Below, piece after piece: positions 3,523 through 24,191 of a stretch of 25,416 nt of DNA. Each line of letters begins with the position of its first letter. The first letter of the stretch is position 1. The translations under genes and the position numbers were made by a program. Below the pieces are notes generated by a model. That model did not search any database, had not been told where the DNA came from, and was given only the letters and a program-made list of their open reading frames with translations. The stretch covers positions 1-25,416 of the IMG/VR virus record IMGVR_UViG_3300017971_000722. One strand, 5' to 3'. The DNA is from a virus.

Positions 3523-3726
3523 ATGTTGATTAAAACGGAAAAGGACAGCGGCAGAGAAGTATATGTGAATGTGTTGGGGATGAACTATGCTGAGAAGAAA
3601 CCTAACGGTACATGGCAGCTATCATTCCCCGACAGCCACTCCATTATAGTGGCAGAGAGGTTTGGCGAGGAGCTGAAAGACGCTGTTAATATCTTAAAAA
3701 TCCACTACAGGGAGAAGAATAGATGA
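3523..3726 (+). CDS. Small hypothetical protein (67 aa)
   Basis: A strong ribosome binding site (AAGGAG at about 3510) precedes the ATG at normal spacing. The 67-residue product is soluble and mixed alpha/beta, with a YAEKKPNGTWQLSF strand pair and an amphipathic C-terminal helix. No motif identifies it. Its stop overlaps the start of the aldo/keto reductase gene as ATGA, so it belongs to the same translational unit. Function unknown. Confidence 0.65.
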   Translation: MLIKTEKDSGREVYVNVLGMNYAEKKPNGTWQLSFPDSHSIIVAERFGEELKDAVNILKIHYREKNR

Positions 3727-4517
3727 AGCTCTGCTTAGGCACAGTGCAGTTAGGCTGTGGAACCTACGGAATAAATAGAAATGTAGAAGATCAACATACT
3801 GCTCTCAACATGTACAGAGCAGCCAGGGACTGCGGCGTGGAGTACTTTGACTGTAGTTTTGAATATGGCGATTCTTTAGAAAGACTGCTCTATGCCATAG
3901 GCAAAACCGGCTCTTATAGCGAACCAAAACTAATAGTGAAGCTAAATCCCAATGATGGAGTTAGACAGGTAGAAGTGATGCAGTGGTTTAGAGATGGCCA
4001 TGATTGCCGGTGTCTCATGAGTCATGGCCCCACTGGAGCCAGCTTTAAAGATTTATGGGGCAGGTGGTGCGAGCGCCTGGGCTGCTCTGTCTACTCGCCG
4101 CAAGAAGCACAGGCGGTGAGTGAGTGGGCTGACGTAGTGCAGCTACCTTACAATGTATTGGATCAAAGACTGAAGGATTATCCAGACATCAACTACGAAC
4201 CTATGCTACGCAGCATATTTCTACAAGGACTGTTGTTGATGAAAGATATACCACCTTGGGCAGATCGCTACGTTGCTCCTGTGCAGCGTAAGGCTGCTGA
4301 GTATGGCATCTCCACTATGGAGTTGTGCTTGTGGTTTGTGGAGAGCACTTTCCCAAATACCTTAGTGAGCTTTGGTGCTGACAGTCCCAGACAGATTGAA
4401 GAGGTAGCAGAGGTAGCTAAGAAAGCAGAGAAGAAAGTACATGAGCTAGGGTTTCCTTACTTTGCCTATGGCTTGCAGTGTGATGAGCTGCGGGTAATAG
4501 ATCCGAGGTTTTGGTAA
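3723..4517 (+). CDS. Aldo/keto reductase family oxidoreductase
   Basis: The 264-residue product begins with the family signature LGTVQLGCGTYGINR. It keeps the whole catalytic tetrad: D43 and Y48 in FDCSFEYGD, K73 in LIVKLNP, and H101 in LMSHGP. The family uses NADPH to reduce carbonyls or, in sugar pathways, to oxidise or reduce sugar intermediates. The protein is shorter than typical (about 300), but the terminal SFGADSPRQIEE motif, where the cofactor phosphate binds, is present. It overlaps the next gene by one base (TAATG). In bacteria, reductases of this type often sit beside SpsF/NeuA-type cytidylyltransferases in surface-glycan clusters. The same pairing here suggests a role in nucleotide-sugar synthesis, and the substrate cannot be read from the sequence. 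Confidence 0.85.
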   Translation: MKLCLGTVQLGCGTYGINRNVEDQHTALNMYRAARDCGVEYFDCSFEYGDSLERLLYAIGKTGSYSEPKLIVKLNPNDGVRQVEVMQWFRDGHDCRCLMSHGPTGASFKDLWGRWCERLGCSVYSPQEAQAVSEWADVVQLPYNVLDQRLKDYPDINYEPMLRSIFLQGLLLMKDIPPWADRYVAPVQRKAAEYGISTMELCLWFVESTFPNTLVSFGADSPRQIEEVAEVAKKAEKKVHELGFPYFAYGLQCDELRVIDPRFW

Positions 4518-5203
4518 TGGGAAAAATAGTAGGAGTTGTACAGGCTAGAACAGGCAGCACTCGATTGCCTCGCAAGGTTCTGCTAGAAGTAGAAGGGTAT
4601 TCTGCGATAGAGCTGCTGTTTAGCAGAGTAAAGCAATCTGTGTTTGTAGATGAATGGTGGTTAGCTACTACAGAGTTAGATGAAGATGTGGTATTGTCTA
4701 TAGTAGCCAAGCTTTCTGGTCTTAAAGTATACAAAGGCAGTGAGGAGAATGTTCACAACCGCTTCTGTCAGATTGCCTACTTGTCGGAAGCTGATTACTT
4801 GGTGCGGATAACGGGAGACTGTCCTTTTATGGACCCAATGGTAATTGACTATGTAGTTTGCACCCCAGGAGAATGGGATTACTGCTCTAACATTAGACCT
4901 GTGCGCACTTTCCCTGATGGCTTGGATGTTGAAGTGTTCAGCAGAAGAAAGCTCTTCAGTACGGCCAATAGCTCTAGTCCAGAGGTGCAGGAGCACGTGA
5001 CACCTGGTATGTACAATGAGGCCGACAGCCATTGTGTTGAAAGCGTAGCTGACTTCTCCCACCTACGGTGGACTCTGGACTACCGGGAGGACTGGAATCT
5101 GATAAAAACCTGCTGGAAGTATTTTCTGCCTCGTAGAGATTTTAGCTGGCTGGAAGTGCTGGCATGGCAGACTAAATATTATCCTATGTCACTTTGGAGA
5201 TAG
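4517..5203 (+). CDS. SpsF-type cytidylyltransferase
   Basis: The 228-residue product matches the SpsF / CMP-sugar synthetase-like family of GT-A-fold nucleotidyltransferases. It has the nucleotide-binding loop QARTGSTRLPRK (residues 9-20) and GSEENVHNRF (74-83). It also has the metal-site motif RITGDCPFMDP (97-107), PDGLDVEVF (133-141) and the late EHVTPGMY and RWTLDYREDW motifs. Members activate an acidic sugar, such as a nonulosonate, with CTP for surface polysaccharide or flagellar glycans. The frame is open from a TTG at 4511, but the ATG at 4517 overlapping the upstream TAA is preferred, with GAGG nine bases before it. No NeuB-like synthase is present in the window, so any pathway is incomplete or uses host precursors. 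Confidence 0.85.
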   Translation: MGKIVGVVQARTGSTRLPRKVLLEVEGYSAIELLFSRVKQSVFVDEWWLATTELDEDVVLSIVAKLSGLKVYKGSEENVHNRFCQIAYLSEADYLVRITGDCPFMDPMVIDYVVCTPGEWDYCSNIRPVRTFPDGLDVEVFSRRKLFSTANSSSPEVQEHVTPGMYNEADSHCVESVADFSHLRWTLDYREDWNLIKTCWKYFLPRRDFSWLEVLAWQTKYYPMSLWR

Positions 5204-8249: not shown

Positions 8250-9713
8250 ATGTTCGATAACTACAGATTGAAGAAGCAGCTACAGAGAGAACAGTTAGAG
8301 TATGAAATCTCTCAGTACAAAGCTGCTAATAGTATAATGTCTGGAATAGAAGCAAGGTATGCTCGTCCTGACCCTGATGAGCATCTCTGGCTACAACTTG
8401 GTGAGAGTGGTGATGGTAAATACGCTGCTGCTCTCTCAGAAGAAGACCACTACGAGATGCTGGACCAGGCATGGAAGATGTTCAAGACTAACCTGTTTGC
8501 TAGAGCCATTGTTAGGAATCTCGGCAAGTTCATCCTTGGTAAAGGTCCTATTGTAAAGCCAGTCTCTGACAACCAACTCATAAAAGACAAGTGGAAAGAG
8601 TTCACCTATCTCAACAAGTGGTCTCTCAGAGAGAAGGAGATAGTAAGAAGAGTGTTCAGAGATGGAGAGGTGTTTCTTAGGAAATTCATAGACCAACAGA
8701 CAGGCGACACAAAGCTACGTTTTCTAAGAGCGCAGATGATAAGGAATCCTAAAAATGATAAAGACGTAAACAAAGCTGAAGATGTGAGTTTTGGCATAGG
8801 CACTAATAATGACGATGTAGAGGAGCCACTTACCTATTACTACTGCAAGATGAACGACTCTACTCTTATTGAGAAAATACCTGCTTCAGAAGTTATCCAC
8901 ATTAAAATCCTTACAGACAGCGATATGAAACGAGGAATGAGCTTTCTGCTTATTGCTATGCGGATGCTGACTAAGTATGACAGCTGGATGGAGGACAGGA
9001 TATCTCTGAACCAAGCACGTTCTGCTATAGCTCTAGTCCGTAAGGTTGAAGGCACAGGCAGTGCTGTAGAGAGTATAAGGGATGCATATCGGGCTGAGCA
9101 TAAGGATGCTGATAAACACAAACAAAAAGCCTTTCAACGGGGCACCGTATTGACGGCTTCAAAAGGGATCAGCTATGAAATGCTCAGCCCGAATATTCAG
9201 GCTTCCGATGTGAAAGACGACGGCAGGAACATGCTGTTAGCTATTGCTGCTGGTTGTGGCTTTCCGGAGATGATGCTCACCAGCGACTACAGCAATGCTA
9301 ATTACTCAAGCTCTATGGTAGCGCAGAATCCTTTTGTGAGAGAGATAGAGGATTGGCAGGACTTCTTTACTCATTACTATAAGAACGAGATATTCATTCC
9401 TGTCATGAAAGCCTATCAGGAGTATGGTGATAAGAAGATTCCTGATAAAGAAGATTTGGACTGCACGATAGAATGGCCCCCACTCATATTGGCTGATATT
9501 TATAAGAACAATCAGGCCAGAGAGATACAGCACCGCAACAAGATCATCTCTAAGAAGACTTGGCAGGAAAGGGAAGGACTGGACTCTGATGAGGAAGAAA
9601 GGAACATGGAAGACGAGCAAGGTAAGGATATATATTCGAATCCCTTTAACATGCCTGTATCGCCTGTGAATCAGTATTCGCAATTTGGAGATAGTGAAGA
9701 TGAATCTATGTGA
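8250..9713 (+). CDS. Portal protein
   Basis: The 487-residue protein is of normal portal length and sits directly after the terminase, as expected. Recognisable segments are NLFARAIVRNLGKFILG near residue 80 and the region GMSFLLIAMRMLTKYDSW around 230, which is typical of lambda/SPP1-type portals. The stem and crown helices follow, and the C-terminus is acidic and disordered (EERNMEDEQGKD onward). The portal forms the dodecameric ring at one capsid vertex through which terminase pumps DNA and to which the tail attaches. TGGAG lies ten bases before the ATG. The 3' end overlaps the homing endonuclease gene by 14 bases. Confidence 0.88.
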   Translation: MFDNYRLKKQLQREQLEYEISQYKAANSIMSGIEARYARPDPDEHLWLQLGESGDGKYAAALSEEDHYEMLDQAWKMFKTNLFARAIVRNLGKFILGKGPIVKPVSDNQLIKDKWKEFTYLNKWSLREKEIVRRVFRDGEVFLRKFIDQQTGDTKLRFLRAQMIRNPKNDKDVNKAEDVSFGIGTNNDDVEEPLTYYYCKMNDSTLIEKIPASEVIHIKILTDSDMKRGMSFLLIAMRMLTKYDSWMEDRISLNQARSAIALVRKVEGTGSAVESIRDAYRAEHKDADKHKQKAFQRGTVLTASKGISYEMLSPNIQASDVKDDGRNMLLAIAAGCGFPEMMLTSDYSNANYSSSMVAQNPFVREIEDWQDFFTHYYKNEIFIPVMKAYQEYGDKKIPDKEDLDCTIEWPPLILADIYKNNQAREIQHRNKIISKKTWQEREGLDSDEEERNMEDEQGKDIYSNPFNMPVSPVNQYSQFGDSEDESM

Positions 9714-10659
9714 GTGTGGATGTGGTGAAGGGTGTAAGAATAGATTTGTAAATGGTCACAATCGGAGAGGCAAGAAACAATCTAACCACCAGAGAGAAAC
9801 AGTTAGTCTGATGATGCTGAATAATAATCCTACTAAAGATCCTAAAGTGAGAGAAAAAATTCGGCAAGCTCATCTAGGGAAAACTTTATCAGAAGAGCAT
9901 AAGTTGAAATTAAGAGATCTTCATTTAGGAGATAAAAATCACTTCTATGGTAAGAAGCATTCTTTAGGATCTAGACAAAAAATGTCAGCTTCTTTAAAAG
10001 GTAGGAAGATGTCTGATGAAGCAAAGGAAAATATGAGAGCTTCTGCTAAGCGAGGAGATGACAATCCATCTAGAAGGCTAGATGTTAAAGCTAAGATAAG
10101 TACTAAAATGAAAGGAAGAACATTTTCCGATATAACTAGAAAGAAGATGAGTGAAAGAGCTAAAGGTAGGAAGCCCTCTGAAGAGACTAAAGCAAAGATT
10201 CAGGCTACTAGATTATATGGTGATGATAATCCTGCTAGGAGACCAGAGATTAGAAAGTTAATTAGTGAGAAGAACAAAGGAAGAGAAGTTTCTGAACAGA
10301 CTAGAGTTAATATGAGTATTGTTTCACTATTACGATTTCAAGACAAAACTAAACATCCTAGATGGAAGGGAGGAGCTTCTAAAGATCCCTATTGCTCTGT
10401 CTGGAAGAATAAAGAGTATAAAAGAGATCTTATGGAGAGGGATGGATTTGAATGTAAGAATCCGGATTGCTGGAATACAACAGAACGTTTGACATTGCAT
10501 CACATAGATTATGATAAGGAGAATTGCCATCCTAGTAATCTAATAACTATCTGTGGAAGCTGTAATGCTAGGGCTAACTCGAATAGAGATTATTGGAGGG
10601 AGATATACTCTTCTATTGATGGGATAAAAGAGGATGGCGCGGCAGTAATCTGTGGCTAG
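9700..10659 (+). CDS. Free-standing HNH homing endonuclease (NUMOD3-type)
   Basis: The 319-residue product starts with a cysteine-rich segment (CECGCGEGC). It then has a series of basic helix repeats of the NUMOD3 kind (about 50-200), such as GKTLSEEHKLKL, GRKMSDEAKENM and GRKPSEETKAKI, which grip DNA. An HNH nuclease follows (about 245-295): ERDGFECKNPDC, LHHIDYD and NLITICGSCNARAN. The third catalytic-motif position is Asn rather than His, giving an HNN variant known to be active in relatives. The frame is open from a TTG at 9685, but the ATG at 9700 has GGAG nine bases upstream and is preferred. It sits between portal and phosphoesterase as a mobile insertion that does not interrupt either gene. 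Confidence 0.9.
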   Translation: MNLCECGCGEGCKNRFVNGHNRRGKKQSNHQRETVSLMMLNNNPTKDPKVREKIRQAHLGKTLSEEHKLKLRDLHLGDKNHFYGKKHSLGSRQKMSASLKGRKMSDEAKENMRASAKRGDDNPSRRLDVKAKISTKMKGRTFSDITRKKMSERAKGRKPSEETKAKIQATRLYGDDNPARRPEIRKLISEKNKGREVSEQTRVNMSIVSLLRFQDKTKHPRWKGGASKDPYCSVWKNKEYKRDLMERDGFECKNPDCWNTTERLTLHHIDYDKENCHPSNLITICGSCNARANSNRDYWREIYSSIDGIKEDGAAVICG

Positions 10660-10668
10660 GAGGGTATT

Positions 10669-11997
10669 TTGGCTGCAAAGATTGAGACAGAGAGTTTACT
10701 CAAGCACCTTGTTGACCTAATTAAAAAACACGGAGAAGGGCTATCGCTAAGGAGATTTGAAGCTCTTAGCAAAGGCAAGTACAGCGAGAGACCTTATGTT
10801 ACTCGTTGGGGAAGTTGGTTGGCGGCAAAGGAGGCTGCTATTAAATATGCTAATAATAACGATATTGAGATAGCAAAAAACAAAGGCAAGAAAGAGGAAG
10901 TATTAGACTTAGACAATCCTGTAGAGCATGAAAATGCACTACTCCGCAAAGAGATAGACCACCTAAGACAGCAAATAACCTACCTGAAGAAAGAACGCGT
11001 ATCTGAGGAGGAAATAAAGAAATATCTATTTGACTTAAAAGACTTGGAGCCGGAGATCCCTAATTGGACTGTTGATTTGACCGAAGATACAGTAATAGGT
11101 GTTCCATGCCTCCAGCTATCAGATTGGCATTTTAATGAGATAGTATTCCCAGAGCAAGTATTTGGTAAGAATGAATATAATATTACTATCGCAAAAACAA
11201 GAGTAAGGAATCTTGCTAGGGCTACTATTGATCTTTTAAAGAGCCATTTAGGTGGGGATTATCCTGGCATTGTTGTTCTCCTCAATGGAGATTTCCTTAG
11301 TGGAGATATCCATGAGGACTTAACCTCTACCAATGACAAGCCTATAATGCCTGCTTTCTTGGATGTCTTTAATGTTCTCTCTTGGTTCCTGGAGACGATG
11401 CTTTCTGAGTTCAATAAGGTGATGGTGTTTGGTTGTGTTGGCAACCATCCCCGTACTACAGATAAAATACCAGCTAAGAATAAAACGTACACCAATTACG
11501 ATTGGTTGTTGTACCGGCTGGTGGAGAAGTGGTTTGAGGAGAAGGATGGGATAAATTTTTATATTTCTGATGGGGATGATTTACAGTTCAAGATCTACCA
11601 TCACCGCTACCGCATGACTCATGGTGATCAGTTCAGAGGTGGTACAGGTTTTATAGGTCCTTATGCTCCTATTACTAGAGGAGAGATAAGGAAGAGGGCT
11701 GCTGCTGAGACTCTGAACATCAACTATGATACGCTGGTGATAGGTCACTTTCACCAGCTCATGGTGTTGGACAGGGTGATTGTAAATGGCAGCTTGGTTG
11801 GATACGATGAGCTGGGAGTGAAGTCTAACTTTCCTTATCAAGATCCCAAACAAGCTCTTTGGATAACTCATCCTAGGAGAGGCATTACCATCAGCGCTCC
11901 TGTATTCTGTGACCGCAAGATGGTACAGAAGTATAGGGCTGATGGCAAGTGGGTGTCGTGGATGCCTACAGATGGAACTAACAAAGAAAAAAGCTAA
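10669..11997 (+). CDS. Calcineurin-like metallophosphoesterase with HNH-repeat-like N-terminus
   Basis: The start is a TTG at 10669 with AGGAGG five bases before it, giving 442 residues. Residues 145-400 carry all metallophosphoesterase motifs: D152 and H154 in SDWHFNE, G207-D208 in LNGDF, GNHPR at 258-262, H318 in MTHGDQF, and GHFH at 359-362. These bind two metals and hydrolyse phosphodiesters or phosphomonoesters. The N-terminal 60 residues (SLRRFEALSKGKYSE to TRWGSWLAAKEAA) resemble the small helical repeat associated with HNH homing endonucleases. A coiled coil follows at about 86-115. A DNA-binding front on a nuclease-like phosphoesterase fits a DNA-processing role. The gene follows the homing endonuclease closely, and its own function in the head module is not known. 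Confidence 0.85.
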   Translation: MAAKIETESLLKHLVDLIKKHGEGLSLRRFEALSKGKYSERPYVTRWGSWLAAKEAAIKYANNNDIEIAKNKGKKEEVLDLDNPVEHENALLRKEIDHLRQQITYLKKERVSEEEIKKYLFDLKDLEPEIPNWTVDLTEDTVIGVPCLQLSDWHFNEIVFPEQVFGKNEYNITIAKTRVRNLARATIDLLKSHLGGDYPGIVVLLNGDFLSGDIHEDLTSTNDKPIMPAFLDVFNVLSWFLETMLSEFNKVMVFGCVGNHPRTTDKIPAKNKTYTNYDWLLYRLVEKWFEEKDGINFYISDGDDLQFKIYHHRYRMTHGDQFRGGTGFIGPYAPITRGEIRKRAAAETLNINYDTLVIGHFHQLMVLDRVIVNGSLVGYDELGVKSNFPYQDPKQALWITHPRRGITISAPVFCDRKMVQKYRADGKWVSWMPTDGTNKEKS

Positions 11998-12335: not shown

Positions 12336-13181
12336 ATGAAGATCAGAAAGACATTTCTAATATTTCTATTGTCGAGTTTTTTGGCGGCTGGATGTTTAGT
12401 AACGACTACCAGCAACATCCAGTATTATGATAGTAAGGTTTCATGTGATTCTTTAGAAGAAGCCTTTAGATCCCAGTTTGTTGTTAAAACAGTTTTTTAT
12501 ACTGCCCAAGGGGCTGAAGTGCCTATTAAGGCAAAGTCTACACATATTGGAGACGGATATCTCCTCATACTTACTCATTGCTGCGATAATGATATCGAAG
12601 CAAGTCCTGATCTAGCTCGTTATGTTGGGTTAAATGCTACAAAAAGATATTTCATAGATGAGAAAGAGTTGGAATGGGTTGGTAAGATAGATGATGTTAC
12701 TTTGTTGTATGCTGATTGGCTGAAAGAATATCCTACTAGTCCTGCTTTTGGTGATAGTGATAATCTGAAAGTTGGGAACGAGGTTTTTGTATATGGTTAT
12801 AGCAATGGTCTAGTCTTTAACTTCAAAAGAGGCGAAGTTTCCTGTGTTGATATGGAGACTATGAATGAAGATTACAAACAATACTATCATTATGGGAATT
12901 TGGCTTTTGTAATTTCTATTCCATTGAATTCTGGCGATAGTGGCAGTCCTGTTTTTGCTTTGCATGATGGGGAACTTGAAATCATTGGGGTGGTTGTTGC
13001 TGGGTGGGTCACCAGGATGGCGGGTCAATCACAGGGGCTGTGTTTTGCTTTGAGGAGTAATTTTGTGAAGAAGTGTATTGAAAAAATAAAATTAGGAGAA
13101 CCATTGGAAGTAGAGAAGGAAAGTAATGAAATAATTAAAGGCTGGAGTGATGACGACTTCGGCATGCCACATTATAGATAA
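12336..13181 (+). CDS. Lipoprotein trypsin-like serine protease
   Basis: The 281-residue protein has a lipoprotein signal: KIRK, a hydrophobic core, then the lipobox LAAGC with C20 as the lipidated cysteine. The chymotrypsin-fold triad is intact. H81 lies in LTHCCD, D119 or D120 in GKIDDVTLLYA, and S202 in NSGDSGSPVF. The chain should therefore be an active, membrane-tethered serine protease outside the cytoplasm. HtrA-like phage proteases are rare; this one lacks a PDZ domain and has several cysteines (C82, C83, C170). The gene follows its upstream neighbour after one base with GAGGAGA before its ATG. It is likely a lysogenic-conversion or exclusion factor rather than a virion part, but this is inference. 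Confidence 0.8.
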   Translation: MKIRKTFLIFLLSSFLAAGCLVTTTSNIQYYDSKVSCDSLEEAFRSQFVVKTVFYTAQGAEVPIKAKSTHIGDGYLLILTHCCDNDIEASPDLARYVGLNATKRYFIDEKELEWVGKIDDVTLLYADWLKEYPTSPAFGDSDNLKVGNEVFVYGYSNGLVFNFKRGEVSCVDMETMNEDYKQYYHYGNLAFVISIPLNSGDSGSPVFALHDGELEIIGVVVAGWVTRMAGQSQGLCFALRSNFVKKCIEKIKLGEPLEVEKESNEIIKGWSDDDFGMPHYR

Positions 13182-13918: not shown

Positions 13919-14216
13919 AACCTGCACCCATCCTGAACACAAAGGTAGGAGGAATATACCTCTTACCTATTTTTCTAAGCATCCTAAGACTAAAGATGGC
14001 CGACAGTCTATTTGCAAGGAATGCAACAGGAGAGCTGCTAGAGAGAGAGTCAGAAGGTTACAGAAAGAAAAAAAGAAGATAAAACCAAGGCAGGATTACA
14101 AGGAGCCTCTGGAAGAACTGGATTATCATGAGCTGAAGGAGGACTTGGACTATAAGGAGCCTTGGAACAGTAGAACTCTATTGAAGGATCTTAGTATAGA
14201 CGAGAATGGCAGTTGA
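13908..14216 (+). CDS. Small zinc-finger protein (102 aa)
   Basis: The frame starts with a TTG at 13908, preceded by AGGCGG eight bases upstream; no other start is available nearby. Residues 4-46 form a zinc-binding unit: C6 with H8 or H11, then C36 and C39 in SICKECNRR. Between them is the YFSKHPKTKDGRQ turn. This pattern is common at the N-termini of phage endonuclease VII-like proteins and small recombination-associated zinc fingers. Here the domain is followed only by a basic stretch and a Glu/Leu/Tyr repeat tail (YKEPLEELDY, LDYKEPWN). DNA or RNA binding is likely. It overlaps both neighbours by 11 bases. Confidence 0.6.
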   Translation: MIYKTCTHPEHKGRRNIPLTYFSKHPKTKDGRQSICKECNRRAARERVRRLQKEKKKIKPRQDYKEPLEELDYHELKEDLDYKEPWNSRTLLKDLSIDENGS

Positions 14217-16704
14217 AAGTGTAAATGAAGCATTAATGAACTTCCTCCTTAAGAGGAGTCACTACATTCAGAGGTATGAGAATGGTACTATTACTGAAGT
14301 GATGGCTCCTTACCATAGGGCTAAACAACAGTTGGCTGAAAGTGTGATGAGGTTGGAAGACTATGGGACTGGTTACACTTTACAGTATCGTATTGACAGG
14401 CTGAATAGCCAAATGGCCGAAATAGATGCTGTACTCTCAACTGCTACTGCTGAGGGGATTAATAATTTGCAGGAGAATCTTTCCCACTTTGCTTATGACC
14501 ACAAGGAAGTTTATGAGGACTTACTAGATACAAAGTTTGGCGAGATAGGGATTAATATTACTAGAATTCCATTTGAGCATGTAGACAGAATGCTTAGCAG
14601 TCCTTTAGGAATGCAGGGAGCTGATTGGCAAGCTAGGTTTGAGAATCGCTATGGTCAGCAGTTAGTGAGGATAAAGGAAGAGCTATCACAGAGTATGATT
14701 TTGGGGGAGGATATGGCTAAGGCTTCTCGTCGCTTGTGGGGACAAGGAGCCTTAATGACCGGCACAGTTGGTAGGAGCTTACAAGATACAGCAAAAGTGA
14801 TAACTAGAACTGAGATAATGAGAACTCAGAATATAGTTAACAAGGCTATATATGATGAGAATATAGATGTAATAAAAGGACTAGAATTTTGTGCTGTTTT
14901 GGATGATAGAACTTGTATAGTTTGTGGAAGTCGTGATGGAAAGATCTACTATTATAACCAAAATCCTCCAGGACCATTTGATACGCCTCCTCTTCATCCT
15001 CTTTGCAGATGTGTATTCTGTCCCCTAACTAAGTCTTGGAGGGAGCTTGGTGTAAATGCTGATGAAGTTCCCCAAGGTACTAGAGCTGCTTTTGATGGTC
15101 AAGTACCAGCTAGTCTTAGTTATGATCAATGGCTAAGAGCGATGGATGCTGCTGATCCAGATTTTGTTAAAGACATACTTGGTAAGAGATACAAATACTG
15201 GCAGACAGGACAGTTATCTTTAAAGAAGATGGTATCAGACAACAGAATAATTCCATTAGAGGAGCTAAAGAAAATAACAAAAGAGAAACTGCTAAAAAAA
15301 GGATTGCCTCTGGTGGCAGCCGAAATGCCAACCTGGAAAATCGCCGACCTGATTAATGATATAACGCTTGGCGATTTCCTAAAGGCGGTACGGAATGGAG
15401 AAACAAGCAAAGTGTCTTCTTACTTCGATGATATCATCAGCCACCAACCACTCTCCGTAGTCCAGCACAACCTGAATGATGTGAACGTAATGCGCTACAT
15501 GTATGAGCGAGGTATGAGCACTAATCAGATGCATGGTTTCTTGGGTGATTACAGCAAAATGTCTAGAGCTAAGTTGTATAAAGGTGGTATACCTGTCCAA
15601 CCAACAGCTCCTGAGTTACAAGCTAAAATGACAGCTCGCCAGATTGCTGCCAGAAAAAACAAATGGATTAAAACAAAACAGCATCACAGTATAGCCGATA
15701 ACACAGAGCTGGAGATTGCTGATGGTCTTGGAGCAGACCATGTAATAGGCAACACTCCCTTTGATGTCTTTCTCAATAATGAGTTTATAGAAGTGAAGAC
15801 TATGCTGAATAATACAAGTGGTCTCAAAGGACAGATCTCTATGCATGTAGAGGCTATCCCTCGCAAGCGTGCTTTTGTGAAGAAATACGGAGTGAGAGGC
15901 CACACGGTAGCTATAGACAAGACGCCTGGTAGTGAGACATTCGGTAAGATATTCTACAGGGAAGGTTTCAAGAAGTATAGACTGGAAAACATGATAGAAG
16001 TCAAAGACTATGATCACCTAAAACAATTGCTGAAAAAAGGAGCTAAGGAGCCACCCACAATAGCATCTGTAAAGGCGAAGGTACCGAAGCTGAACACATT
16101 GAAGAAGAACGAGAACTGGGCTAAAAAGAACCTACGTCTTGTTGAGGCTGACTACGACGAGCTGGACAATGATGTTGCTAACTTATTTAACAGCTACTTG
16201 AAGGGAGCGGCTGATGAGTTACAAGTGAAGCCTGTAGCTGTGAGGTTTGACGAGAGGCTGTTTTTAGGCAAGAATGCTAACGTAACAGCTCTATCTTTTG
16301 AAGATGGTACACTGGCTTTCAATCCTAAGTTCTTTCAACATATGGATGATTTGAAGTTGTTCATGAAAGAGCAGAATGACATAGGACAGTTTGTGACTGC
16401 CAGCCGAGGCCATGTGTTCAGACATGAACTTGGGCACTTGCGCTACTTCCAGATGGGCGGCACTGAGGCTACCGCTACTCGTAAGCTATCCAAGAAACAT
16501 TTGGGGATGCTGAGCAAGGATGTGGGCAAGTCCAATATGCCTCGTTACTTGAGTAAGTATTCTCTGAAGAATGAAGGAGAATTCTACGCTGAGATGATGT
16601 CTCGTAAACTTGCTGGTGAACGGCTGCATCCTGTCACCATCAGGATACTGAATAACATAGAGAAAAGTATTAAGAAGTTAAAAGTGAAGAAGAGAAGAAA
16701 ATAA
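14206..16704 (+). CDS. MuF minor head protein fused to nuclease-like and zincin domains
   Basis: At 832 residues this is about twice the length of a plain MuF/SPP1 gp7-type head protein. The MuF part is residues 1-280. It ends in the TRTEIMR motif and a cysteine cluster: C229, C237 and C240, then H264, C267, C269 and C272 in LHPLCRCVFC. Residues 500-570 resemble a PD-(D/E)XK nuclease: D520, then E529 and K531 in FIEVKTM, within a PFDVFLNN-EFIEV layout. Residues 735-800 carry a zincin motif, HELGH (740-744), with E792 or E796 as third ligand. Virion MuF proteins with toxin-like tails are known. The middle region (15290-15500) has more C-rich codons than its surroundings, suggesting acquisition. 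No separate virion role for the C-terminal domains can be shown here. Confidence 0.8.
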   Translation: MAVESVNEALMNFLLKRSHYIQRYENGTITEVMAPYHRAKQQLAESVMRLEDYGTGYTLQYRIDRLNSQMAEIDAVLSTATAEGINNLQENLSHFAYDHKEVYEDLLDTKFGEIGINITRIPFEHVDRMLSSPLGMQGADWQARFENRYGQQLVRIKEELSQSMILGEDMAKASRRLWGQGALMTGTVGRSLQDTAKVITRTEIMRTQNIVNKAIYDENIDVIKGLEFCAVLDDRTCIVCGSRDGKIYYYNQNPPGPFDTPPLHPLCRCVFCPLTKSWRELGVNADEVPQGTRAAFDGQVPASLSYDQWLRAMDAADPDFVKDILGKRYKYWQTGQLSLKKMVSDNRIIPLEELKKITKEKLLKKGLPLVAAEMPTWKIADLINDITLGDFLKAVRNGETSKVSSYFDDIISHQPLSVVQHNLNDVNVMRYMYERGMSTNQMHGFLGDYSKMSRAKLYKGGIPVQPTAPELQAKMTARQIAARKNKWIKTKQHHSIADNTELEIADGLGADHVIGNTPFDVFLNNEFIEVKTMLNNTSGLKGQISMHVEAIPRKRAFVKKYGVRGHTVAIDKTPGSETFGKIFYREGFKKYRLENMIEVKDYDHLKQLLKKGAKEPPTIASVKAKVPKLNTLKKNENWAKKNLRLVEADYDELDNDVANLFNSYLKGAADELQVKPVAVRFDERLFLGKNANVTALSFEDGTLAFNPKFFQHMDDLKLFMKEQNDIGQFVTASRGHVFRHELGHLRYFQMGGTEATATRKLSKKHLGMLSKDVGKSNMPRYLSKYSLKNEGEFYAEMMSRKLAGERLHPVTIRILNNIEKSIKKLKVKKRRK

Positions 16705-16869
16705 ATGCTCACAATACTCCAATGCGGAAAGTGTAAATACAAATTAGAGTGGGTCATAACTGACGACCTAGAAGACTCCTACTACAAGTGTCAAAAATAC
16801 CCAAACAAGATTCCTACCTATGTAGAGGAAGCTACTGAGGAGTGTCCTAAATTTGAAGAGAAAGGATAA
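16705..16869 (+). CDS. Small zinc-ribbon protein (54 aa)
   Basis: The ATG lies immediately after the MuF stop (TAAATG), and the TAA ends five bases before the sulfotransferase start. The product has two cysteine pairs or halves: C7 and C10 in QCGKCKY, C29 in YYKCQKY and C48 in EECPKF. This is a rubredoxin- or zinc-ribbon-like arrangement with a loose second knuckle. Size and acidity suggest a small metal-binding partner. Its position directly after an effector-like gene is where a cognate immunity or chaperone gene would be expected, but nothing in the sequence tests that. Confidence 0.6.
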   Translation: MLTILQCGKCKYKLEWVITDDLEDSYYKCQKYPNKIPTYVEEATEECPKFEEKG

Positions 16870-16874
16870 GGAGA

Positions 16875-17624
16875 GTGGTTGATACAGCAAGTTTTGTCTT
16901 TAACAGCGAGGAAGCAGCAAAGCAGTTTAACAAGGCTGTTGACTTTATAAAATGGCATGGTGGTAAGTGCTATAGGATTACAAATAGCACTATGGCTGTA
17001 GGGCTGAAGAACACTAATGTTAAGTTTAACCTGAGGCCGAAGCTGTTTGCGGAGGAGAAGGTATTTGGTATTGGCTTTGGTAGAACTGGCACTATGAGTC
17101 TGGCAGATGCTATGAGCATACTAGGATATAAGAGCAGAAAACAGAGACCAATAACCATGAATGATGTGGCTGATTATGACTTCATTGGTACTCTTCCTAA
17201 TTTAGAAAGTATTAAGATTTTCAATTCTCTAACCATTAATGCTAAGTTTATAATGACTGTTAGAGAGATGGAGTCCTGGATAGAATCCTGTAAAAAGACA
17301 TTAGGAGCTAGAGTCTCTGAAAAGGCTAAGAACCTGGTAGTGGGTTTGTATAAGGAAGAGGACTATTGGCAGTATTGGTCTCATGTACAGTGGGATGAAG
17401 AGCTGTATAGACAAGCGATGGTCAAATACACAGAGCTAGTTCGAAAGTATTTCAAAGAAGAGCCAGAAAAACTATTAATCTTAGATATTAGTAAAGGTGA
17501 GGGTTGGGAAAAGCTCTGTCCTTTTCTCGGCAAGGAGATACCGGAGGAGTCTTTCCCATGGCGACACCAGGGAGTGCTTGGAGTTGATGCTGTTAATGGT
17601 GATGATGAATTAGCAGGAGAGTAA
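16875..17624 (+). CDS. Sulfotransferase-like protein
   Basis: The 249-residue product has the PAPS-binding P-loop VFGIGFGRTGTMSL (residues 63-76). The ILGYKS turn follows. The family's FIMTVREMESW motif is also present, where the Arg and following residues contact the 3' phosphate. Such enzymes transfer sulfate from PAPS to sugars, lipids or amino acids. The N-terminal 60 residues are unlike the family and may be a small separate domain. The start is a GTG at 16875 only one base after AAGGAG, which is closer than usual, so an unannounced downstream start is possible. It is followed after two bases by a cyclodeaminase-family gene, so the two probably act in one pathway. Confidence 0.75.
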   Translation: MVDTASFVFNSEEAAKQFNKAVDFIKWHGGKCYRITNSTMAVGLKNTNVKFNLRPKLFAEEKVFGIGFGRTGTMSLADAMSILGYKSRKQRPITMNDVADYDFIGTLPNLESIKIFNSLTINAKFIMTVREMESWIESCKKTLGARVSEKAKNLVVGLYKEEDYWQYWSHVQWDEELYRQAMVKYTELVRKYFKEEPEKLLILDISKGEGWEKLCPFLGKEIPEESFPWRHQGVLGVDAVNGDDELAGE

Positions 17625-17626
17625 AG

Positions 17627-18637
17627 ATGACCAGAAAGATAGAAGGGTTGAGGGAAGCTTTCATACTAACAGAGCCGGAGATAGAAGGGATTTTAAATAG
17701 AGTAGGATGGAAGGAGATAATTAATAGGGTCGCAGAAACTTTTGTTGAAGAGGCTAATAGTAATACAGTATCACCGCCTAAGACTATTATAGAAGTAGAT
17801 AAGTACAAGAATGACTACAGAGTGATGCCTAGTTATATGCTGAAGTATCCAGACTTTATTGGCACCAAAATAGTCTCTGCTTGTACTTACAATCCAGAGT
17901 ACGGATTTCCTTTGGCTATGGGGACTTATATCTTAAATAAAACCAGATTTCAGATTCCTGTTCTGTTATTTGATGCGAATATAACAACTGCTTACAGAAC
18001 GGCAGCTGCTAGTGCGGTGGCTGCTAGAGAGTTGGCTGCTGATCCGAAAGAGCCCAGAGTTTTGGGACTGGTTGGGTGTGGGCAACAATCCTATTATCAC
18101 ATTCCAGCCATCTATTCTGTGTGTGAGAACATAGAAACAGTACTTATCAACGACAAGAGCAAAGAGGCAGAGGAAAAGCTAGAGGATCATTTCAAGGACC
18201 TCTATGATATGTGCGCTGTGAAGAAAACAGATGTACTGCTTGGGGCAGATATCGTGGTGACTCTTACTCCTACTAAACAGCCACACATGTTTCCAAATAA
18301 TTTGGACAGGGCTTACAGAAAGCAAGTCATCATAGCTGCTGGAGGGGACAGTGAGAGCAAAATGGAGTGGGCTTCGCAGATTTTCACTACCGTCGATCCT
18401 TACTGTGATAGCCTTGCGCAGGTCTCTCACACTGGTACTGTATGTAGTGCTATTGGGCTTGGATATATACGTTTAGAGGACATAAACTCCCTAGGAGATC
18501 TGATGGTAGGGAAGAAGGAAATGAGCTTCGGTAAAAATAAGAAGATGTTTTTTAGTACTGGTGTTGCTTTACAGGATTTAGCCATGGCTATACTACTGTA
18601 TCAGGAACTAGAAAAAGGTGATCCCATAGGAGGATAA
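17627..18637 (+). CDS. Ornithine cyclodeaminase / mu-crystallin family protein
   Basis: The 336-residue product matches the family throughout. YRVMPSYM (64-71) and K81 in GTKIVSA fit the substrate pocket. RTAAASAVAARELA (124-137) follows. A Rossmann NAD loop, GLVGCGQQ, lies at 147-154, D241 in AAGGDSESKME, and the C-terminal STGVALQDLAMA is present. Members convert ornithine to proline with loss of ammonia, or make other imino and amino acids such as diaminopropionate precursors (SbnB type). Which one applies here is not readable. CAGGAG before the ATG gives a good start. Coupling with the sulfotransferase-like gene and the glycan enzymes at 3723-5203 suggests a shared decoration or metabolite pathway. 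Confidence 0.85.
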   Translation: MTRKIEGLREAFILTEPEIEGILNRVGWKEIINRVAETFVEEANSNTVSPPKTIIEVDKYKNDYRVMPSYMLKYPDFIGTKIVSACTYNPEYGFPLAMGTYILNKTRFQIPVLLFDANITTAYRTAAASAVAARELAADPKEPRVLGLVGCGQQSYYHIPAIYSVCENIETVLINDKSKEAEEKLEDHFKDLYDMCAVKKTDVLLGADIVVTLTPTKQPHMFPNNLDRAYRKQVIIAAGGDSESKMEWASQIFTTVDPYCDSLAQVSHTGTVCSAIGLGYIRLEDINSLGDLMVGKKEMSFGKNKKMFFSTGVALQDLAMAILLYQELEKGDPIGG

Positions 18638-20031: not shown

Positions 20032-21441
20032 ATGAAAGATAAAATCAAAGCACATAGAATTAGAACAGAGGACATTGTTGACTCTTGGGACAGTTCTATC
20101 TTTAGTGAAATTGTAGAGCAGAACATTAATGAGGATGAACATACAGTTTCTGGAGCTTGTATTTTCGGCACCAGGTTTTCTGCTAATGGCTACGTGTATC
20201 AGGATGCAGCTGTTGATAAGTTGACTCAGCTTGCTAATGGTACCAAGTTCTTTATTGACCATCCTAGTAAGGATGAGCAAAAGCAGCGAGATGGCGTAAG
20301 ACCAATGACTTCTTGGGCTGGAGTTTTCTCCAACTCTCGTAGACAAGGCGATAAGGTTTATGCTGATTTAAAGGTTAGAGAGTCTTGGTGGCCGCTGGTT
20401 AGAGATGTTGCTGTGATGCGACCGCCTGGCATTGGCAATAGCATTAACAGCAGGGTGAAGGTCTTCAAAAACGAAAAGGGCGAGGAGAGCATTCTGGATA
20501 TAGATCTCCTGAAGAGTGTAGATCTGGTTAGTTCGGCAGCCACTACGCAGGATCTTTTCCAGCACATGCCTGACCTCTCCAACAAAGAGGAAGAGATGGA
20601 GATAAAAGAATTCTTTAAACAATTCAACATTGAAACTGAGCAAGAGGACTTAGAGGCTATAATGAAGTCCAAGATTGACAAGGTCATTAAAGAGGGACTT
20701 CTTAAGGATAAACTAAAAGAGAGAGACATTAACAAGGCTATTAGCCAACTCAACTGGGATGTCTCTGATGTAGTTGATCAGATTCTTAGGTCTGACAAGG
20801 CTGCTGCTGATAAGAAGAAAGAAATTAGTAGTGTGATGGATGATTGGGAATCCGAGATTACTAAGATATTAAATGGTAACATTAAAAAGAAGACTGATGG
20901 TAAAACAGATCAGTCTGATAGTAAGGAGCGAGAAATGAAGATAGAAGAACTAACACTGGACCTGATTAAGAATGAAAAGCCCGACCTTATTGAACAGATT
21001 CTGGCAGAGTTGGGTGAGGCAGAACGGGTAAAGACTCTGGAGGCAGAGAACGAAACGATGAGTAATAAGATAAAAGAGATGGAGGAATCCATCAAGTCGA
21101 AAGACGAAGAAATTACTGCTCTGAAGACCGAGAACGAGGACCTCAAGAAGAAGGTTGATGAGTACGAGCAGAAAGACAAGAAGGTAGCTAAAGAGGCCCT
21201 CATCCAAGAGAAACTGAAAGAAGTCAAGCTTCCTGATGAGGCTATGAGCGATGTGTTCATGGCTGATTTGATGCTGAAGGATGAAGAGGGTATTGAAGCT
21301 GCTATTAAAGACAGAAAGGAACTTTGGTCTAAAGGCTCCGGTAAGGTTAAGAATGTTGGTGAGTCGTTTGACGACAAGCAAGAGCCGGACAAAGATAAAA
21401 GAGAGAAAGCCAAAGGTTCTTTCACTAGCAAATTGAAATAG
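20032..21441 (+). CDS. Prohead protease-scaffold fusion
   Basis: The N-terminal 180 residues match phage prohead proteases: H77 in FIDHPS, the SWAGVF strand, S137 and S140 in GIGNSINSR, and D164 in KSVDLVSSAAT. These cut scaffold and capsid precursors during maturation. From about 185 the chain becomes charged and helical. A long coiled coil runs from 330 to 390 and the tail is Lys/Asp-rich, the build of a scaffold. The order protease, scaffold, capsid is standard. Two in-frame internal ATGs with good ribosome binding sites (20596 and 20935) could yield scaffold-only products, as with the nested scaffold in lambda. TGGAG lies 6 bases before the main ATG. Confidence 0.82.
   Translation: MKDKIKAHRIRTEDIVDSWDSSIFSEIVEQNINEDEHTVSGACIFGTRFSANGYVYQDAAVDKLTQLANGTKFFIDHPSKDEQKQRDGVRPMTSWAGVFSNSRRQGDKVYADLKVRESWWPLVRDVAVMRPPGIGNSINSRVKVFKNEKGEESILDIDLLKSVDLVSSAATTQDLFQHMPDLSNKEEEMEIKEFFKQFNIETEQEDLEAIMKSKIDKVIKEGLLKDKLKERDINKAISQLNWDVSDVVDQILRSDKAAADKKKEISSVMDDWESEITKILNGNIKKKTDGKTDQSDSKEREMKIEELTLDLIKNEKPDLIEQILAELGEAERVKTLEAENETMSNKIKEMEESIKSKDEEITALKTENEDLKKKVDEYEQKDKKVAKEALIQEKLKEVKLPDEAMSDVFMADLMLKDEEGIEAAIKDRKELWSKGSGKVKNVGESFDDKQEPDKDKREKAKGSFTSKLK
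20587..20598 (+). promoter_or_regulatory. Internal ribosome binding site and in-frame ATG (scaffold start 1)
   Basis: GAGG at 20587-20590 is followed by the ATG at 20596, in frame with the protease gene (residue 189). The product would begin just after the protease domain and be 281 residues long, nearly all helical scaffold. Confidence 0.45.
20923..20937 (+). promoter_or_regulatory. Internal ribosome binding site and in-frame ATG (scaffold start 2)
   Basis: AAGGAG (20923-20928) lies six bases before the ATG at 20935, in frame (residue 302). The match and spacing are better than at many real starts in this window. The product would be 168 residues, made of the coiled coil and the basic tail. 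Confidence 0.55.
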
Positions 21442-23114: not shown

Positions 23115-24191
23115 ATGTTTAGAAATAAAATAGGTGTGGCAGTAAAAGACCTCATCGAGCAAGCGGGACCTCAGGGTGCTGTGGATATTATCCGTGAAGT
23201 GCTCGAAGAAGGCAAATATACTCCTGAAGAGCTGTTCTCTCTTAGGGAGATCTGGTATGCCACTGAGGGAGACAAGGACGTCAGTGAAGCTATCTCCAGT
23301 GATATGTTTCCGCAAATCACTAGTGAGATCATCAACAAGAAGTTGATTGATGCTTACAACAGGGTGAAGGTCATCGGTGATATGCTTACTACTACGGTTT
23401 CTTCCAATATGGAAATTGAGACTGTGGCGGGTTTTGATGCTTCCGAGAATCCTGAAGAGGTTCCGCAGGGTCACGAGTACGAAGACTCTAACATCACTGA
23501 GAAGTACGTGACCATTCCGCATACCAAGTATGGTCGTCTCATCAGCATCACTGAGGAGATGATATACTTTGACAAGAGTGGTCAGATTCTTACTAGAGCA
23601 CAAGGCATTGGTGAGAAGGCTGCACAGTACAAAGAGAAGTTGATTGTTGAAGGTATTCAGGACATTAACAGCGACGTCTTCAGACCTTCTGGAGTTCCTA
23701 CGGCTTTCTATAGGACAGCGGCTTCTGGTGATAGGAAGATCAACTCTAAGTCTTCTACGGCTTTTGGTGAGAGTGGGCTGGAAGAGGCTTTCAAGCTTAT
23801 GCACAACATGACTGATGAGAATGGTGACTATGTGTATATTGATACTGGCAGCTTGTATCTGTTGGTACCGCAGGATCTGTGGCTTGAAGCTCTTCAGATG
23901 AGCAATTCAACCCTCACGCCTGAGTCGGCTGAAAATGCAGTAAATGTTTACAAGGGAGCTTTCACTCCGTTGACATCTCCATATATCACAGCTCAGAATA
24001 ATGGCTACTGGTATATTGGTGACTTCAAACGGGACTTCTGGTGGTCAGAGGTTTGGCCGCTTCAGACCTTCACGATGAAGCCCGGTAACGAGCAAGAGTT
24101 CCGTAGAGACGTTAAGGCTACTTTTAAGGTTAGATTCTATGGTCAGATTGGTGCTGTTGATGACAAGCACAGCTACAAGTTTACTAACTAA
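23115..24191 (+). CDS. Major capsid protein (HK97-fold, probable)
   Basis: At 358 residues, after protease/scaffold and before a terminator, this gene is in the place and size of the major capsid protein. The first 50 residues are helical and charged, consistent with a removable delta domain. The rest has FPQITSEIINKKLIDAY, the PHTKYGRLISITEEMI strand-helix, PQDLWLEALQMSNSTL and a C-terminal RRDVKATFKVRFYGQIG segment that is typical of phage capsid proteins. Two-fold and loop residues cannot be read directly. AAGGAG precedes the ATG. Its ending is followed by the strongest terminator of the window, as expected for a gene made in large amounts. Confidence 0.8.
   Translation: MFRNKIGVAVKDLIEQAGPQGAVDIIREVLEEGKYTPEELFSLREIWYATEGDKDVSEAISSDMFPQITSEIINKKLIDAYNRVKVIGDMLTTTVSSNMEIETVAGFDASENPEEVPQGHEYEDSNITEKYVTIPHTKYGRLISITEEMIYFDKSGQILTRAQGIGEKAAQYKEKLIVEGIQDINSDVFRPSGVPTAFYRTAASGDRKINSKSSTAFGESGLEEAFKLMHNMTDENGDYVYIDTGSLYLLVPQDLWLEALQMSNSTLTPESAENAVNVYKGAFTPLTSPYITAQNNGYWYIGDFKRDFWWSEVWPLQTFTMKPGNEQEFRRDVKATFKVRFYGQIGAVDDKHSYKFTN

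What the first reader, a model, noticed from the sequence alone, without database searches (positions are those of the whole stretch)
14206..16704. MuF head protein carrying a nuclease-like segment and a C-terminal zincin
The sequence shows a MuF cysteine cluster (C237, C240, then C267-C272), a later EVK with an upstream Asp (D520, E529, K531), and HELGH at 740-744 in one uninterrupted 832-residue frame. MuF proteins with effector tails injected or carried in the virion are known as a class. This particular pairing of a PD-(D/E)XK-like domain with a zincin is not one I recall. It may be a virion-borne effector that cuts DNA or a protein in a newly infected cell.
Basis: partly seen in the sequence, partly recalled or inferred. 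Interest (0 to 1): 0.85.

Follow-up and report, generated by a model that had tools for sequence, protein, structure and literature searches.

The report
Phage head protein with nuclease and protease
This uncultivated phage makes a head protein whose tail carries a predicted DNA-cutting enzyme joined to a predicted protein-cutting enzyme, and relatives swap further enzymes into the same protein, so it is probably cargo that the virus injects into the bacterium it infects.

Summary
Window 14206-16704 is one 832-residue frame: a full MuF head protein (1-~345), a helical linker, a PD-(D/E)XK nuclease fold (~473-620) and a zincin (~628-832). AlphaFold is confident of the last two (pLDDT 87); they resemble Hjc resolvase (Z 10.3) and lethal-factor-type metallopeptidase (Z 10.0). 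Sequence libraries do not assign either enzyme.

All 12 IMG/VR contigs found with one domain have both, adjacent, behind MuF (pattern-seeded scans). The tail is not structural: close relative L044 ends where MuF ends, L026 and L045 carry other tails, and 41 of 71 complete MuF frames are bare. In 7 of 11 proteins further cargo (zincins, ADP-ribosyltransferases, GNAT) sits at three junctions. A 54-61 aa four-cysteine gene follows in exactly the 7 proteins that have the linker.

Best reading: a MuF "polyvalent" effector, packaged via the portal and injected; the nuclease cuts DNA and the zincin processes the chain or a host protein. The class is known. A PD-(D/E)XK module in it is absent from the survey passages I read. 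Function is untested.

The parts
14206..16704 (+). whole gene, 832 aa, MuF - linker - PD-(D/E)XK - zincin
   Evidence: open frame; the only match in its own record
14206..15240 (+). MuF minor head protein, residues 1-345
   Evidence: PF04233 38.9 bits at 156-271; TIGR01641; phrog_241 3-440; the 60 listed of 882 isolated-phage matches stop at residue 343-346
14914..15021 (+). MuF cysteine cluster C237, C240, C267, C269, C272
   Evidence: C237, C240, C267, C269 invariant in 7 of 7 aligned; intein insertion sites in L006, L010 and L044
15241..15621 (+). helical linker, residues 346-472, present in 7 of 11 core proteins
   Evidence: alignments and BLAST segments; low confidence in the whole-length model
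15622..16065 (+). PD-(D/E)XK nuclease fold, residues about 473-620
   Evidence: AlphaFold model; Hjc Z 10.3; E501, D520, E529, K531 kept in 11 of 11
15763..15798 (+). catalytic motif D520 - 8 residues - E529-V-K531
16087..16701 (+). lethal-factor-like zincin fold, residues 628-832
   Evidence: AlphaFold model; Z 10.0 over 171 residues
16423..16437 (+). HELGH, zinc-binding motif, residues 740-744
   Evidence: H740, E741, H744 kept in 11 of 11
16573..16593 (+). EGEFYAE, residues 790-796, holds the probable third zinc ligand
   Evidence: E792 and E796 kept in 11 of 11; E790 is Q in L129
16705..16869 (+). small four-cysteine ORF, 54 aa, starting at the base after the MuF stop codon; possible partner or immunity protein
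   Evidence: similar ORFs of 55-61 aa follow MuF in L004, L005, L007, L010, L016, L018
6335..8182 (+). terminase large subunit (context)
   Evidence: weak PHROGs matches, best 2.8e-06; homologous and syntenic in relatives
8250..9713 (+). portal protein (context; expected docking partner of MuF)
   Evidence: PF05136 1.2e-28
20032..21441 (+). probable prohead protease and scaffold (context)
   Evidence: position, coiled coil and look of the N-terminal part (by eye), weak PF06810 0.0062 below cut-off; homologous in relatives
23115..24191 (+). major capsid protein (context)
   Evidence: PF25209 2e-25

Best explanation
It is a virion-borne multi-enzyme ('polyvalent') MuF effector. The MuF part binds the portal and carries the chain into the head, and the chain travels into the cell with the DNA. 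There the PD-(D/E)XK domain cuts DNA (host, or that of a competing element). The zincin, always fused directly behind it, either cuts the chain at its domain junctions to free the enzymes or cleaves a host protein. Shown here: domain order, predicted folds with matching signature residues, co-occurrence of the two enzymes, exchange of extra enzyme modules around them, and dispensability of the tail in related phages. Inferred: packaging, injection, catalytic activity and all targets.
For: MuF assignment and gene order portal - MuF - protease/scaffold - capsid kept in relatives as far as the fetched stretches reach. Both folds at high confidence. Active-site residues of both enzymes kept in 11 of 11 proteins; the core of the ten relatives is 41-56% identical to the window. 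Mean pairwise identity of nuclease (0.51) and zincin (0.55) lies in the range of scaffold (0.48), MuF (0.54), portal (0.59) and capsid (0.61) over 6-8 phages, so the enzymes are about as constrained as structural proteins. Tail absent in 41 of 71 complete MuF frames and in close relative L044. Seven of 11 core proteins carry further cargo: PF03496 ADP-ribosyltransferase in L004 (1.2e-22), L010 (1.1e-18) and L016 (7.6e-13), GNAT in L018 (PF00583 21.0 bits, cut-off 20.7), further HExxH stretches in L004, L005, L010 and L129. A small ORF follows the window gene and six relatives, as described for most MuF toxins (PMC5576092, passage). Literature: MuF-fused enzymes are predicted to be injected effectors (PMC5512222, PMC5576092, PMC9503650, passages); SPP1 gp7 is targeted to the procapsid by the portal in few copies (PMC6316719, passage).
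Against: No virion or infection data exist for this phage. Neither enzyme is assigned by Pfam or by sequence search of solved structures, so the enzyme calls rest on predicted folds; Foldseek alone is borderline and the zincin rmsd is 4.2 A. A viral-library structure match, A0A6J5R747 (225 aa, E 5.2e-11, 29% identity over 145 columns), is too short to hold MuF and both enzymes: it may be one domain standing alone or a fragment, and which domain it matches was not shown. The small downstream ORF follows the linker, not the nuclease-zincin pair. The window protein carries none of the extra cargo and no exact match to the junction motif.
Confidence: 0.62

Rival explanations
1. Sub-reading A: the zincin is a self-processing peptidase that cuts the MuF chain at domain junctions inside the head or after entry, freeing nuclease and cargo.
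For: A short motif G[VLI]x[AVI][EK] occurs 22 times in ten core proteins against a mean of 6.0 in shuffles (highest of 1000: 17), and 15 of 22 lie within 30 residues of an alignment-defined module edge, a zone of 13.8%; among 120 orderings of the same residue classes it gave the highest count there. L026, which lacks this zincin, has none in 1842 aa. PMC5512222 (passage) proposes autoproteolysis for such domains, with P1 DdrB as precedent.
Against: The motif was chosen by eye on the same proteins, so the statistics are inflated. In L129, found later, only 1 of 3 copies is at a junction. The window protein has no copy. Junction linkers may simply share composition.
Confidence: 0.35
2. Sub-reading B: the zincin acts on a host protein (for example a defence or nucleoid protein) and does not process its own chain.
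For: Single chains carry up to three HExxH stretches (488, 1214 and 1601 in the protein of L003/L004; 510, 834 and 1214 in that of L005), more than self-processing needs; LF-type metallopeptidases are listed as toxins of polymorphic systems (PMC3482391, passage).
Against: In the 12 contigs found, this zincin is always directly behind the nuclease, which would fit an intramolecular job.
Confidence: 0.4
3. Nuclease and zincin work during assembly, for example trimming packaged DNA or maturing head proteins, not in the infected cell.
For: The gene lies among packaging and head genes; the nuclease fold is nearest to Hjc, an enzyme of branched DNA.
Against: Related phages with homologous terminase, portal or capsid lack the pair (L026, L044, L045), so assembly does not need it; a prohead protease candidate is already present at 20032-21441.
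Confidence: 0.12
4. The tail is a degenerate structural extension that only looks like enzymes.
For: Sequence libraries do not assign it; enzymes are inferred from folds.
Against: Named active-site residues are kept in 11 of 11 at 41-56% core identity; bare MuF relatives exist.
Confidence: 0.05

Closest known systems
Polyvalent proteins of phages and conjugative elements (Iyer et al. 2017, PMC5512222; passages read)
   Same: several unrelated enzymes in one chain, zincin the most common module, MuF and ART among the hubs, genes beside virion genes
   Different: [quoted passage not shown] here a PD-(D/E)XK fold is the constant module, and L005 has a weak ParB-like end (PF08857 0.027) in the same chain, with a look-alike by eye in L010
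MuF polymorphic toxins (Jamet et al. 2017, PMC5576092; passages read)
   Same: MuF N-terminus with C-terminal nuclease, metallopeptidase or ART; a small ORF usually follows, as here; predicted delivery with phage DNA
   Different: here two constant enzymes plus exchangeable inserts; the small ORF tracks the linker and not the two enzymes; that study ties MuF toxins to temperate phages, and no lysogeny gene was looked for here
Hjc-type Holliday junction resolvases (PD-(D/E)XK fold)
   Same: predicted fold, Z 10.3 over 100 residues; E, D, ExK order (the signature of the fold is recalled)
   Different: no sequence match; substrate unknown; fused to a head protein
Lethal-factor-like zincins (Pfam ATLF) and phage minor capsid proteins with similar predicted structure
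   Same: fold Z 10.0 over 171 residues, HExxH plus downstream Glu; BFVD entries named minor capsid protein or lethal factor among the matches
   Different: the window zincin has no Pfam ATLF match, rmsd 4.2 A; only some cargo zincins of relatives match weakly, below the cut-off (L005 25.3 and L010 20.0 bits, cut-off 27.4)
SPP1 gp7 (PMC6316719; passage read)
   Same: MuF head protein, gene after the portal
   Different: gp7 carries no enzyme tail

Membership tests
MuF head proteins | MuF domain above curated cut-off | tested here: met
   PF04233 38.9 bits against 29.6; TIGR01641 49.3 against 39.65
MuF head proteins | gene in the head module with the portal | tested here: met
   portal 8250-9713, capsid 23115-24191; order kept in relatives
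Polyvalent proteins | two or more unrelated enzyme domains in one chain | tested here: met
   two folds predicted in one chain; more enzymes in relatives
Polyvalent proteins | protein delivered into the host with the DNA | not testable with these tools
   needs virion proteomics and infection
MuF toxins (Jamet et al.) | small ORF (under 150 aa) directly following, putative immunity | tested here: met
   54-aa four-cysteine ORF at 16705-16869; similar 55-61 aa ORFs in 6 of 10 relatives. That it gives immunity is not shown; a first listing with a 60-aa limit had missed it
PD-(D/E)XK nucleases | alpha-beta core with E, D, ExK active site | tested here: met
   helix 19-36, strands 49-51, 54-61, 92-99 and 110-114 of the model; E501, D520, E529, K531 kept in 11 of 11; fold matches
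PD-(D/E)XK nucleases | metal-dependent nuclease activity | not testable with these tools
   bench assay needed
Hjc resolvases | sequence-level membership and junction cleavage | tested here: inconclusive
   fold only; no sequence match to solved structures
Zincin metallopeptidases | HExxH plus downstream Glu in a zincin fold | tested here: met
   H740, E741, H744, E792, E796 kept in 11 of 11; fold Z 10.0
Pfam ATLF (lethal-factor family) | match above the Pfam gathering score | tested here: not met
   no ATLF match for the window zincin; it may work like one but is not filed as a member

The most novel reading that the evidence does not exclude
An injected viral polyprotein: one MuF chain loads several enzymes through the portal, and its own zincin cuts them apart at a shared junction signal, with the PD-(D/E)XK nuclease and zincin as the fixed processing-and-attack unit, three slots for exchangeable enzymes, and a small four-cysteine partner protein matched to the linker.
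Probability: 0.22. Interest if true: 0.75.

Novelty: new variant of a known kind. Interest (0 to 1): 0.52.

Why it matters
Proteins injected with phage DNA act in the first minutes of infection, yet few MuF fusions have been tested. Here a family of relatives keeps one nuclease-protease pair constant while other enzymes come and go around it. That gives a natural experiment: the constant pair can be tested for processing and the variable modules for host targets. If the nuclease works it adds a DNA-cutting fold that the 2017 polyvalent-protein survey, in the passages read, did not list.

Tried and rejected
Close relatives by the whole protein or the nuclease alone: single-sequence IMG/VR scans found none; only the zincin query did, after which alignments found the rest. 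Isolated phages: nuclease and zincin segments had no tblastn match, although MuF did in 882 records (60 listed, all stopping at residue 343-346). Species genomes: the core alignment found nothing. A nuclease profile over 392 genomes of the phylum of L026 gave 6 genomes with weak hits (7 places), which on reading look like thioredoxin-type proteins: rejected. Sequence profiles against solved structures gave only chance-level matches. All IMG/VR and genome-contig scans start from short conserved peptides, so more distant relatives, or either domain alone, could have been missed.

phrog_115 seemed at first to cover the nuclease (18-670); the segment alone did not match it, so that lead was dropped. 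The zincin segment matches phrog_21401 (pilot protein) at 5.2e-05 and phrog_17197 (peptidase) at 0.03; neither was pursued.

Junction motif as a genome-wide prohead-protease site: it occurs 4 times in the 33 window genes scanned, none of them MuF, close to the shuffled rate by my estimate; rejected. In eleven other long MuF frames it occurs 6 times, with no junction analysis made. Tree-like inheritance of the pair: pairwise identities between genes do not correlate (r between -0.42 and 0.37), so neither vertical descent nor exchange could be shown.

Immunity gene: I first concluded that no small ORF follows the window gene, because one search listed ORFs of 60 aa or more. Reading the three frames and the downstream stretches of 12 relatives corrected this. 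The four-cysteine ORF was sought with a rule made after seeing the first copies; L006 (772 nt), L129 (306 nt) and L026 (584 nt) hold little downstream DNA.

Pfam on relatives' cargo left much unassigned: the L047 tail, L018 slot 2 and L004 slot 1 gave nothing, and L016 slot 1, L045 and L026 only chance-level matches. L007's C-terminal ART-like domain is by eye plus a weak DRAT match (0.032). The cargo zincins of L004, L026 and L129 are called from HExxH by eye.

Fold matches: the tool warns that middling Z is common. The nuclease rows are mostly PD-(D/E)XK proteins and the zincin rows zincins, and each covers most of its domain.
Full report
What is there. Window 14206-16704 (+) is a single 832-residue frame. 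It is the gene for a MuF minor head protein (PF04233, residues 156-271; TIGR01641) in a head module with terminase, portal (PF05136), a probable protease/scaffold and capsid (PF25209). The window is a whole IMG/VR virus record of 25,416 bases. In isolated phages the 60 listed of 882 MuF matches stop at residue 343-346, so residues 346-832 are an added tail.

The tail's two enzymes. Neither half of the tail is assigned to an enzyme family by Pfam, NCBIfam or solved-structure sequence search; PHROGs gave only weak matches. An AlphaFold model of residues 473-832 on 10 natural rows has mean pLDDT 87.3 and pTM 0.82. In the structural comparison model residues 21-138 match the Holliday junction resolvase Hjc (1gef, Z 10.3, rmsd 2.4 A, 100 residues), with SPARDA nuclease subunits, RecU and restriction enzymes lower in the list: the PD-(D/E)XK fold. 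Residues 158-356 match lethal-factor-type zincin (4xm8, Z 10.0, rmsd 4.2 A, 171 residues) and PPEP-1 (6r55, Z 7.0). Foldseek alone is borderline (best E 1.4e-3 for a nuclease and 6.3e-3 for a zincin). A whole-length model keeps both domains but is poor over the MuF cysteine region and the linker (pLDDT 68.6 overall).

Conservation. Scans of IMG/VR found the nuclease or the zincin on 12 contigs. Two pairs of contigs carry identical proteins, so with the window there are 11 distinct proteins: window, L002, L004 (= L003), L005, L006, L007, L010, L015, L016 (= L017), L018, L129. All 11 have both domains, adjacent and in this order, behind MuF; in L010 MuF is split over two frames. E501, D520, E529, K531, H740, E741, H744, E792 and E796 are kept in 11 of 11; E790 is Q in L129. 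The middle letter of ExK varies (V, F, H, C). Core identity to the window is 42-56% in nine and 41% in L129. One result does not fit strict pairing: the best viral structure match, A0A6J5R747 (uncultured phage, 225 aa, E 5.2e-11, 29% identity over 145 columns), is too short to hold MuF and both enzymes.

A chassis with exchangeable cargo. Seven of the 11 proteins carry further modules at three places: between MuF and linker or nuclease (L004, L005, L010, L016, L018, L129), between linker and nuclease (L005, L018), and after the zincin (L004, L005, L007, L010, L016). Identified cargo: ADP-ribosyltransferase PF03496 in L004 (1.2e-22), L010 (1.1e-18) and L016 (7.6e-13); GNAT in L018 (PF00583, 21.0 bits against 20.7); HExxH stretches in L004, L005, L010 and L129, those of L005 and L010 weakly ATLF-like and below the cut-off; a weak ParB-like end in L005 (0.027) with a look-alike by eye in L010. 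Nothing is inserted between nuclease and zincin in any of the 11. Four (window, L002, L006, L015) carry no cargo; L006 has an intein.

A linked small gene. The base after the MuF stop opens a 54-aa ORF with four cysteines (16705-16869). Similar ORFs of 55-61 aa follow MuF in L004, L005, L007, L010, L016 and L018, and were not found after L002, L006, L015, L129, L026 or L044. The seven with the ORF are exactly the seven of 11 that have the helical linker (residues 346-472), and the four without lack it; two of those four hold under 800 nt downstream. This suggests a partner of the linker, perhaps an immunity protein, rather than of the nuclease or zincin. [quoted passage not shown]

Not structural. 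On them 71 MuF frames were complete with the MuF end reached (five are exact repeats): 41 have at most 40 residues after MuF, 3 have 41-100, 27 have more. Seven of the 27 carry the nuclease and zincin, and 8 more have an HExxH without them. Eleven further frames were set aside (10 run off a contig end, 1 partial). L044 (MuF about 49% identical, capsid 66%, scaffold 46%) ends at the end of MuF. L045 (MuF 35%, portal 48%, capsid 53%) has a different 264-residue tail with HExxH. L026, from a Planctomycetota genome record (MuF 46%, terminase 56%, portal 60%), has an 1842-residue MuF with an ART (9.3e-12) and an HExxH stretch by eye, but neither of the window's two enzymes. So the pair is an optional module in this phage group.

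Mechanism. Established: SPP1 gp7, a MuF protein, is drawn into the procapsid by the portal in few copies, and only about 25% of virions lacking it are infectious (PMC6316719, passage). MuF fusions are predicted to be injected effectors (PMC5512222, PMC5576092, PMC9503650, passages). From this I infer packaging and injection. The nuclease most likely attacks host or rival DNA. For the zincin two jobs are about equally likely. Self-processing is favoured by its fixed place beside the nuclease and by a short motif, G[VLI]x[AVI][EK], found 22 times against 6.0 expected and within 30 residues of module edges in 15 of 22 cases. That motif was picked by eye, an independent protein gave 1 of 3 at a junction, and the window itself has none. 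A host target is favoured by the presence of up to three HExxH stretches in single chains.

What is known and what is new. Zincin and ART modules and MuF hubs are described for polyvalent proteins (PMC5512222, passages). MuF toxins with nuclease or metallopeptidase ends are described (PMC5576092, passage: more than half of 191 with a nuclease domain, 20% with a metallopeptidase). In PMC3482391 the rows read for Tox-REase-1 to -10 list no MuF delivery, though Tox-REase-5 lists caudoviruses among its carriers, and PMC5512222 says its ParB-like DNases are not accompanied by other DNase domains. Searches on MuF or polyvalent proteins with peptidase and nuclease terms listed no paper on this combination by title and start of abstract; supplementary tables could not be read, so an earlier unlabelled listing is possible. 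I rate it a new variant of a known kind.

Noticed in passing
L010 2261-8547 (and 3192-3692): MuF gene interrupted before the C237 equivalent by what looks like a split intein: an N-part ends in a stop, a separate 166-aa HNH-like frame follows, and a new frame opens with the C-part. A second intein with a DUF559 remnant sits before the C269 equivalent.
   Followed up: partly
L006 3085-6657 and L044 707-2164: More inteins in the MuF cysteine cluster: L006 has one with a DUF559 endonuclease (5.7e-16) before the C267 equivalent, similar to L010's second intein but two residues away; L044 has a mini-intein at the C237 site of L010's split one.
   Followed up: partly
window 17627-18637: Ornithine cyclodeaminase / mu-crystallin family gene (PF02423, 7.9e-47) between MuF and the capsid genes; no homologue in the fetched stretches of the ten relatives compared.
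   Followed up: partly
window 16875-17624: Sulfotransferase-like gene (PF17784, 1.3e-27) after MuF and its small ORF; no homologue in the fetched stretches of the relatives.
   Followed up: partly
window 3723-5203: Adjacent aldo/keto reductase (PF00248) and cytidylyltransferase (PF02348) genes, a pair resembling surface-sugar synthesis genes (that link is recalled).
   Followed up: no
window 12336-13181: Trypsin-like protease (PF13365, 2.7e-08) with a lipoprotein-like N-terminus by eye.
   Followed up: no
window 9685-10659 and 10669-11997: NUMOD3/HNH homing endonuclease (NUMOD3 4.1e-16) overlapping the portal end, followed by a gene with a homing-endonuclease-associated repeat (3.8e-05, below cut-off).
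   Followed up: no
L047 2-535 and 297-4382: Close MuF relative whose MuF frame appears broken; the long second frame has an unrelated tail without the nuclease or zincin, with a stretch that looks kinase-like by eye; Pfam found nothing.
   Followed up: partly
L004 7841-8047, L005 7081-7281, L007 7796-7999, L010 8553-8762, L026 10526-10744: A second short cysteine-containing ORF of 66-72 aa after MuF in several relatives, similar by eye to each other and distinct from the 54-61 aa one.
   Followed up: no
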